Shown here: positions 1,279 to 2,822 of the stretch, one piece after another
How positions within the stretch are numbered: position 1 is the stretch's first letter
How the letters are laid out: each line of letters starts with the position of its first letter
DNA from: an uncultured Prochlorococcus sp.
GTDB taxonomy: Bacteria; Cyanobacteriota; Cyanobacteriia; PCC-6307; Cyanobiaceae
DNA: 64,000 bases
Assembly: GCA_913048245.1 (NCBI GenBank)
Contig: CAJWWR010000002.1
Coordinates: 1-64,000 of the forward strand
Direction: 5' to 3'
Position numbers and translations under genes: made by a program
The notes under the pieces: generated by a model
What the model saw: the letters and a program-made list of their open reading frames with translations, nothing else
Databases searched by the model: none
Told to the model about the DNA's origin: nothing

Positions 1279-1638
1279 ATGAAAAAAAAATCAATAAGCT
1301 ACAAACTACTTTCCAAAAAAGAACTTCAACATCTTAAAGAATATTATGTTGAGGAAAAAGTAAAAAGCATGAGTCAGGAGGAATTAAAAGAATTCGTCAA
1401 AGAAAACATTGATCATCAAATCAATCAAACAATAGGTGAAGAAGAAGAGAGAGAAGCGTGGAGAGAAATGGAGAACTTTTTTAGTGATTCTTTTGATAGA
1501 TTAATAGATGAAATCAAGAAAAAATATGCAGTTATCCAAGAAAATAATAATTCTGATAAAACTGAATACGAGGAACGTTTAGAAATTATTGATCAACTTA
1601 AAGCCGAAGATGAAAAAAAAGATATGTGGGAGGATTAA
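1279..1638 (+). CDS. hypothetical protein, highly charged, coiled-coil-like
   Basis: 119-aa ORF rich in K/E, followed directly by a strong intrinsic terminator. Confidence 0.65.
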   Translation: MKKKSISYKLLSKKELQHLKEYYVEEKVKSMSQEELKEFVKENIDHQINQTIGEEEEREAWREMENFFSDSFDRLIDEIKKKYAVIQENNNSDKTEYEERLEIIDQLKAEDEKKDMWED

Positions 1639-1730
1639 AAAAAAGACCCCAGGTGGGGTCTTTTTCTTTTGAATGATTAAATCAAGTGTTTCCTTGTTTC
1701 CACTGGATTAATCACTCACTCCTACACACA
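1637..1730 (-). ncRNA. probable Yfr2-family small RNA
   Basis: Minus strand: GAGTGATTAATCCAGTGGAAACAAGGAAACACTTGATTTAATCATTC. It has two GGAAACA motifs (1695-1701 and 1687-1693) in a loop, an outer 10-bp stem (1708-1717 with 1671-1680) and an intrinsic terminator. The 5' end is approximate. Confidence 0.65.
1645..1660. terminator. bidirectional rho-independent terminator
   Basis: gacccc-aggt-ggggtc perfect hairpin flanked by A8 on the left and T5CT4 on the right; U-tracts on both strands. Confidence 0.85.
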
Positions 1731-1948
1731 ATAAAAGTTTAGCTTAATTTTTCTAGTAACGTGAGTTATTTGTAGGCTGATTATAAAGTGTCACATGTGC
1801 CAGTTGCTTATATCAATAAACCAGCTAGAAAAATAAGCTATGAATTTAAGTTCAATAATGATTCTTTAGCGCTTTTTGCCTTAGGTAAAAATCATTACCT
1901 CCTAATCTAATATAGTTGTAGTATAATTCAAAAAAACAATTCATAACA

Positions 1949-2248
1949 ATGAAAATTATTAAACGTCTTTCTCACTTGTTACCTGTTTTAACGATGGGTG
2001 TCATAACAACAACTATTTATTCTCCACCAGCCAATGCCGAAGATTGGTTAGTGAATGAATGCGAAGCTGATAACGATAATGGAGGTAACCCAGTAATTGT
2101 CTGTAATGACGGTTTTAGCATTGCAGTTTTCTGGAATGATGGCAGTTACGTTAATGGATGGTGTAACAGCAGAAATGATTATGATGTAGATTACAGAGGT
2201 TTATCAAGAGAAAATGCACAATCCTGGGTAAGGTACATTTGCAACTAA
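1949..2248 (+). CDS. small secreted Cys-containing protein, paralog 1
   Basis: Signal peptide (MKIIKRLSHLLPVLTMGVITTTIYSPPANA|ED), then C...C.DG...FWNDGSYVNGWCNSRNDYDVDYRGLS...W..YIC; shares pattern with ORF 2520-2822. TATAAT-like box (agtataat) upstream. Confidence 0.75.
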   Translation: MKIIKRLSHLLPVLTMGVITTTIYSPPANAEDWLVNECEADNDNGGNPVIVCNDGFSIAVFWNDGSYVNGWCNSRNDYDVDYRGLSRENAQSWVRYICN

Positions 2249-2519: not shown

Positions 2520-2822
2520 ATGTTTTTAAAAAATTTGAAAAAGTCTATAAAAATTTCGATTGCCCTAACAATTGGATCATTTGGCACATTGATGCTTGCA
2601 CCCACAGCCAAGTCAGAATATTGGCAAGCTCATGAATGCTTTTACGATTATGATGCTAATTATAATCTGGTTGAAGTGTGCCTGGACGGTTATAACATTG
2701 GGATTTTTTGGGATGATGGAAGTTATGTTAATGGGTACTGCACTAGCAGAAGTGACTACAATGTAGATTATTACGGATTATCTAAAAGAGATGCTATTTC
2801 ATGGGTAGATTATTATTGCTAG
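2520..2822 (+). CDS. small secreted Cys-containing protein, paralog 2
   Basis: Signal peptide (...LMLAPTAKSEYW), core HECFYDYDANYNLVEVCLDGYNIGIFWDDGSYVNGYCTSRSDYNVDYYGLSKRDAISWVDYYC. Four Cys aligned with 1949-2248. Confidence 0.75.
   Translation: MFLKNLKKSIKISIALTIGSFGTLMLAPTAKSEYWQAHECFYDYDANYNLVEVCLDGYNIGIFWDDGSYVNGYCTSRSDYNVDYYGLSKRDAISWVDYYC

What the first reader, a model, noticed from the sequence alone, without database searches (positions are those of the whole stretch)
1637..1740. Probable Yfr2-family sRNA converging on a shared bidirectional terminator
Seen directly: the minus strand carries two GGAAACA motifs 8 nt apart (1695-1701, 1687-1693). They sit inside a 10-bp stem formed by 1708-1717 and 1671-1680 with one G-U pair. 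The transcript would end in the GACCCC/GGGGTC hairpin plus a T-tract. A -10-like TAAACT lies about 7 nt upstream of the likely 5' end. Established: the cyanobacterial Yfr2 family is defined by unpaired GGAAACA motifs and an intrinsic terminator. Inference: this locus is a family member, and the opposing 119-aa gene uses the same terminator.
Basis: partly seen in the sequence, partly recalled or inferred. Interest (0 to 1): 0.72.

Follow-up and report, generated by a model that had tools for sequence, protein, structure and literature searches.

The report
Prochlorococcus Yfr2 small regulatory RNA
This is one more copy of Yfr2, a well-known small regulatory RNA of cyanobacteria that can pair with another small RNA, Yfr1; finding it in an uncultured Prochlorococcus genome is expected, so the find is real but ordinary.

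Summary
Window 1731-1667 (minus) matches Rfam RF01701 (Cyano-1) end to end at 62.6 bits (cut-off 41; E 1.4e-8). The four experimentally mapped genes yfr2-yfr5 of Prochlorococcus MED4 match the same model, so Cyano-1 is the Yfr2 family. MED4's mapped starts place the start here at 1729, giving an RNA of about 92 nt that ends in a U-tract near 1637. The GGAAACA hairpin shows strong covariation across 20 relatives. A conserved element at -67 (1796-1784) and a single GntR-type regulator, 78% identical to MED4's, suggest the known regulation. The shared bidirectional terminator is plausible here: the RNA's U-tract overlaps the stop codon of the opposing DUF7326 gene. But the arrangement is not conserved in relatives with the same convergent pair. 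Verdict: new member of a known family, low interest. No RNA-seq was available, so expression is inferred.

The parts
1637..1729 (-). Predicted Yfr2-family sRNA, about 92 nt
   Evidence: Rfam RF01701 62.6 bits; start set by MED4 5' RACE positions, which fall at model position 3 in all four genes
1719..1729 (-). 5' single-stranded arm GUGUGUAGGAG, complementary to the Yfr1 motif with one bulged C
   Evidence: invariant in 20 relatives except one position
1670..1718 (-). Main hairpin with 12-nt loop GAAACAAGGAAA
   Evidence: fold; covariation
1695..1701 (-). GGAAACA motif 1
   Evidence: sequence
1687..1693 (-). GGAAACA motif 2
   Evidence: sequence
1645..1660 (.). Terminator hairpin GACCCC-AGGT-GGGGTC, possibly used from both sides
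   Evidence: use by the plus-strand gene is inference
1637..1644 (-). U-tract of the sRNA terminator; overlaps the stop codon (1636-1638) of the opposing gene
   Evidence: sequence
1736..1741 (-). -10-like TAAACT
   Evidence: sequence; relatives have TANNTT-like hexamers at the same place
1760..1767 (-). AACTCACG at -38 to -31, same place in the syntenic loci of G168 and G143 (AACTCGCA, AACTCGCG)
   Evidence: sequences
1784..1796 (-). ATGTGACACTTTA at -67, conserved upstream element of yfr2 genes; candidate CGRE1 (GntR regulator site)
   Evidence: identity with CGRE1 is inference
1279..1638 (+). Convergent 119-aa gene, DUF7326 (PF24012), conserved in 214 of 266 genomes of the genus

Best explanation
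The minus strand at 1729-1637 encodes a Yfr2-family sRNA. By homology it is transcribed from its own promoter under a GntR-type regulator bound near -67 and ends at the GACCCC hairpin. Its 5' arm captures Yfr1, whose gene is present in this genome, and keeps Yfr1 from its mRNA targets; the exposed GGAAACA loop is a second contact surface for mRNAs. Shown here: membership, structure, covariation, presence of Yfr1 and of the regulator, complementarity. Inferred from MED4 experiments: capture of Yfr1, RNase E control, induction in high light or nitrogen limitation. Inferred from sequence alone: that the opposing gene uses the same hairpin.
For: Rfam RF01701 match, 62.6 bits; MED4 yfr2-5 match the same model within 2 nt of the published 5' ends; hairpin with 9 of 14 pairs changed on both sides, 91% of cells paired, covariation 0.44 against 0.20 in shuffles; Yfr1 in the same genome at 56.2 bits; arm pairs with Yfr1 at -18.8 kcal/mol, matched by 16 of 5000 shuffled arms; -67 element; GntR orthologue 78% identical and next to infC as in MED4; Yfr2 relieves Yfr1 repression in an E. 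coli reporter (PMC6778093).
Against: No transcript data for this organism. The Yfr1 pairing has one bulge, as in the whole genus. Only one copy was found in a 78% complete assembly; MED4 has four. The -67 block could not be compared with the published CGRE1 consensus.
Confidence: 0.9

Rival explanations
1. The Yfr2 gene is real but the hairpin terminates only the sRNA; the DUF7326 mRNA ends elsewhere, so there is no shared bidirectional terminator.
For: In G168 and G143, which have the same convergent pair, the hairpin has no T-run on the gene side and lies at least about 57 nt from the gene; in G122 it is about 170 nt away.
Against: Here the hairpin core starts 7 nt after the stop codon and has T5-C-T4 on the gene side; the scan calls it a terminator on the plus strand.
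Confidence: 0.35
2. Yfr2 at this locus works mainly through its GGAAACA loop on mRNAs and hardly on Yfr1, because the 5' arm is imperfect.
For: The arm lacks one G of the perfect complement (-18.8 against -24.7 kcal/mol); MED4 Yfr2 pulled down 302 mRNAs (PMC6778093).
Against: The same bulged form is genus-wide, and Yfr2 of MED4, whose genes carry it, binds Yfr1 and cancels its effect in E. coli.
Confidence: 0.12
3. The stem-loop is a 3' UTR or processing element of the DUF7326 transcript and not an independent sRNA.
For: It lies immediately downstream of the stop codon.
Against: The Rfam match and the invariant arm and loop are on the minus strand; copies elsewhere in the genus lie beside unrelated genes.
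Confidence: 0.01

Closest known systems
Yfr2-5 of Prochlorococcus MED4 (Yfr2 family, Rfam RF01701 Cyano-1)
   Same: 5' arm GUGUGUAGGAG, GGAAACAAGGAAACA hairpin, terminator, length about 90 nt, -67 element upstream, GntR regulator in the genome
   Different: Different genomic place; no Yfr10-family gene directly upstream, unlike MED4 yfr2, yfr4 and yfr5; one copy found in an incomplete assembly
Yfr2a-c of Synechocystis 6803 (PMC2662882)
   Same: Unpaired 5' segment and 12-nt central loop on a long stem
   Different: Distant relatives at unrelated places; the Rfam consensus for the family has the extra G in the 5' arm
GlmY/GlmZ of Escherichia coli
   Same: A pair of sRNAs acting on each other, the analogy drawn in PMC2518516
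   Different: Not related in sequence; Yfr2 pairs directly with Yfr1

Membership tests
Yfr2 family (Rfam RF01701 Cyano-1) | Covariance-model score above the curated cut-off | tested here: met
   62.6 bits against 41, whole model; MED4 yfr2-5 score 61.8-70.7
Yfr2 family (Rfam RF01701 Cyano-1) | Two GGAAACA motifs in the loop of a long stem | tested here: met
   covariation
Yfr2 family (Rfam RF01701 Cyano-1) | Unpaired conserved 5' segment complementary to Yfr1 | tested here: met
   11 nt unpaired; pairs with own Yfr1; one bulge, as throughout the genus
Yfr2 family (Rfam RF01701 Cyano-1) | Intrinsic terminator at the 3' end | tested here: met
   hairpin plus U8
Yfr2 family (Rfam RF01701 Cyano-1) | Transcribed as a separate abundant RNA of about 80-95 nt | not testable with these tools
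   no transcript data; predicted 92 nt
Yfr2 family (Rfam RF01701 Cyano-1) | CGRE1 promoter motif bound by the GntR regulator (marine picocyanobacteria) | tested here: inconclusive
   conserved -67 element present and, in MED4, exact copies only at yfr2 and yfr4; published consensus not available
Shared bidirectional terminator | Hairpin with a T-run on both strands, between convergent genes | tested here: met
Shared bidirectional terminator | Arrangement conserved in relatives with the same convergent pair | tested here: not met
   no T-run on the gene side in G168 and G143; 170 nt from the gene in G122
Shared bidirectional terminator | Both transcripts end at it | not testable with these tools
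   needs 3'-end mapping

The most novel reading that the evidence does not exclude
At this locus the sRNA and the DUF7326 mRNA share one hairpin and overlap at their 3' ends, so that transcription of one affects termination or stability of the other and couples Yfr2 output to a conserved protein gene.
Probability: 0.05. Interest if true: 0.35.

Novelty: new member of a known kind. Interest (0 to 1): 0.14.

Why it matters
It adds a Yfr2 gene, with its promoter elements, to an uncultured Prochlorococcus genome and shows that Yfr2, Yfr1 and the probable GntR regulator are kept together there. The covarying stem and the conserved -67 element help annotation of other genomes. It does not change what is known of the family.

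Tried and rejected
Yfr10 beside the sRNA, as in MED4: no Rfam Yfr10 match in the window, though it is found beside yfr2, yfr4 and yfr5 of MED4. The second ACTCCTCACAC in the genome (C30) lies inside an ABC transporter gene and is chance. The missing G in the anti-Yfr1 arm looked like an oddity of this copy, but the G-less form is genus-wide (185 of 266 genomes; the perfect form in none), a perfect form occurs in a genome of another genus (G391), and the bulged C was already described in PMC2518516. Atu_C8 and other weak Rfam matches are below cut-off and mostly lean on the terminator. No phage copy of the locus. The 2018 paper defining CGRE1 (PMC6191309) is not held. Laying out the whole genome was not available. 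A covariance model of my own was not built (structure string one column short) and was not needed.

Full report
Observation. All sequence details in the finding are correct. The minus strand at 1731-1667 matches Rfam RF01701 (Cyano-1) over its whole length with 62.6 bits against a cut-off of 41, E 1.4e-8 over the full window. The predicted RNA 1729-1637 folds at -34.9 kcal/mol, z -5.2, with no shuffle as stable.

Cyano-1 is the Yfr2 family. Genome G015 (1,657,990 bases) has Cyano-1 matches starting at 346826, 383387, 654509 and, on the minus strand, 972178. These lie 2 nt from the published starts of MED4 yfr2 (346828), yfr4 (383389), yfr3 (654511) and yfr5 (972176) (PMC1242208), so G015 is MED4 and the model is validated on experimentally mapped genes. 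In all four the mapped start is model position 3, which places the start here at 1729, 6 nt after TAAACT. MED4 members are 89-95 nt; this one would be about 92.

Structure. Twenty diverse members were aligned and the 14-pair hairpin counted: 91% of cells pair, nine pairs change on both sides, covariation 0.44 against 0.20 in shuffles and at most 0.23 when slid. The structure counted is the RNAalifold consensus of the same alignment, so it leans a little towards itself; the size of the effect is still far above both controls. The loop is invariant and the 5' arm is invariant except at one position.

Position. The convergent pair of a DUF7326 gene (PF24012) and yfr2 is also present in G168, where the two small secreted proteins beyond it are kept too, and in G143 and G122. 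Elsewhere in the genus yfr2 copies lie at many places, as published. Here the stop codon of the gene (1636-1638) overlaps the template of the sRNA's U-tract (1637-1644), and the hairpin core starts 7 nt after the stop. In G168 (hairpin about 57 nt from the gene) and G143 there is no T-run on the gene side; in G122 there is a T5 but the hairpin is about 170 nt away. A shared terminator is thus at most a feature of this lineage.

Promoter. A block ATGTGACAnTTAA lies at exactly -67 in 73 of 90 upstream regions, and 85 of 90 score 10 or more out of 12, where shuffles give about 1. Those 90 include many close relatives; among 12 representatives that differ in the promoter region, 9 have the block at -65 to -69, against 5 of 6000 shuffles at -70 to -64. 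Here it is ATGTGACACTTTA, 1796-1784. In MED4 exact copies of ATGTGACAnTTnA occur only at yfr2 and yfr4. PMC6778093 states that the GntR-family regulator PMM1637 binds a motif, CGRE1, found in the MED4 genome only at yfr2 homologs. The window's genome has one GntR gene, 78% identical to the only one in MED4 and next to infC in both. That the -67 block is CGRE1 is my inference; the defining paper was not available.

Function. The genome has a standard Yfr1 (56.2 bits, G000:C23) with ACUCCUCACACAC. The Yfr2 arm GUGUGUAGGAGUG pairs with it through 13 pairs and one bulged C at -18.8 kcal/mol; 16 of 5000 shuffled arms do as well, and 1 of 300 in the full co-fold. This bulged pairing was described for MED4 in PMC2518516. 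In MED4 Yfr2 pulls down Yfr1 and Yfr10, cancels repression by Yfr1 in a GFP reporter in E. coli, and its cleavage by RNase E is blocked when Yfr1 or Yfr10 is bound (PMC6778093). The same mechanism is the best explanation here, by homology.

Genus-wide note. The G-less arm TGTGTAGGAG joined to the loop was found in 185 of 266 Prochlorococcus genomes and the perfectly complementary TGTGTGAGGAG in none; TGTGAAGGAG and TGTGCAGGAG forms also occur. In a sample of 201 genomes of the family one genome of another genus, G391, has the perfect form; that pattern demanded the Prochlorococcus-type loop, so most other genera were not assessed.

Verdict. A real and apparently intact Yfr2 gene, a new member of a well-studied family in a genome where one is expected. 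Low interest. The one part beyond routine, the overlap with the opposing gene's stop codon, is not conserved.

Noticed in passing
window 1949-2248 and 2520-2822 (+): Two tandem, related small proteins (99 and 100 aa) with signal-peptide-like starts and shared W-x-D-G-(S/D)-Y-V-N-G motifs; no Pfam, NCBIfam or PHROGs match; the same pair follows yfr2 in G168.
   Followed up: partly
window 1279-1638 (+): DUF7326 gene found in 214 of 266 genomes of the genus; in MED4 and in the window it lies next to a response-regulator gene.
   Followed up: partly
window 1760-1767 (-): AACTCACG at -38 to -31 of yfr2; the same block at the same distance in the syntenic loci of G168 and G143, although G143 lacks the -67 element.
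   Followed up: partly
whole genus: The perfectly Yfr1-complementary form of the Yfr2 arm is absent in all 266 genomes while the one-base-shorter form is in 185, so imperfect pairing with Yfr1 looks fixed in the genus.
   Followed up: partly
G000:C1:75829-75841 (+): The only other exact match to ATGTGACAnTTnA in the window's genome, away from any detected yfr2; could be chance or another site of the regulator.
   Followed up: no
L138 3025-3429 (+), genome G168: A 134-aa open frame made of four near-identical 33-residue repeats (KSLFNKFSIEDIILSSKEAYQKELKKGMGSKIG), next to the conserved locus.
   Followed up: no
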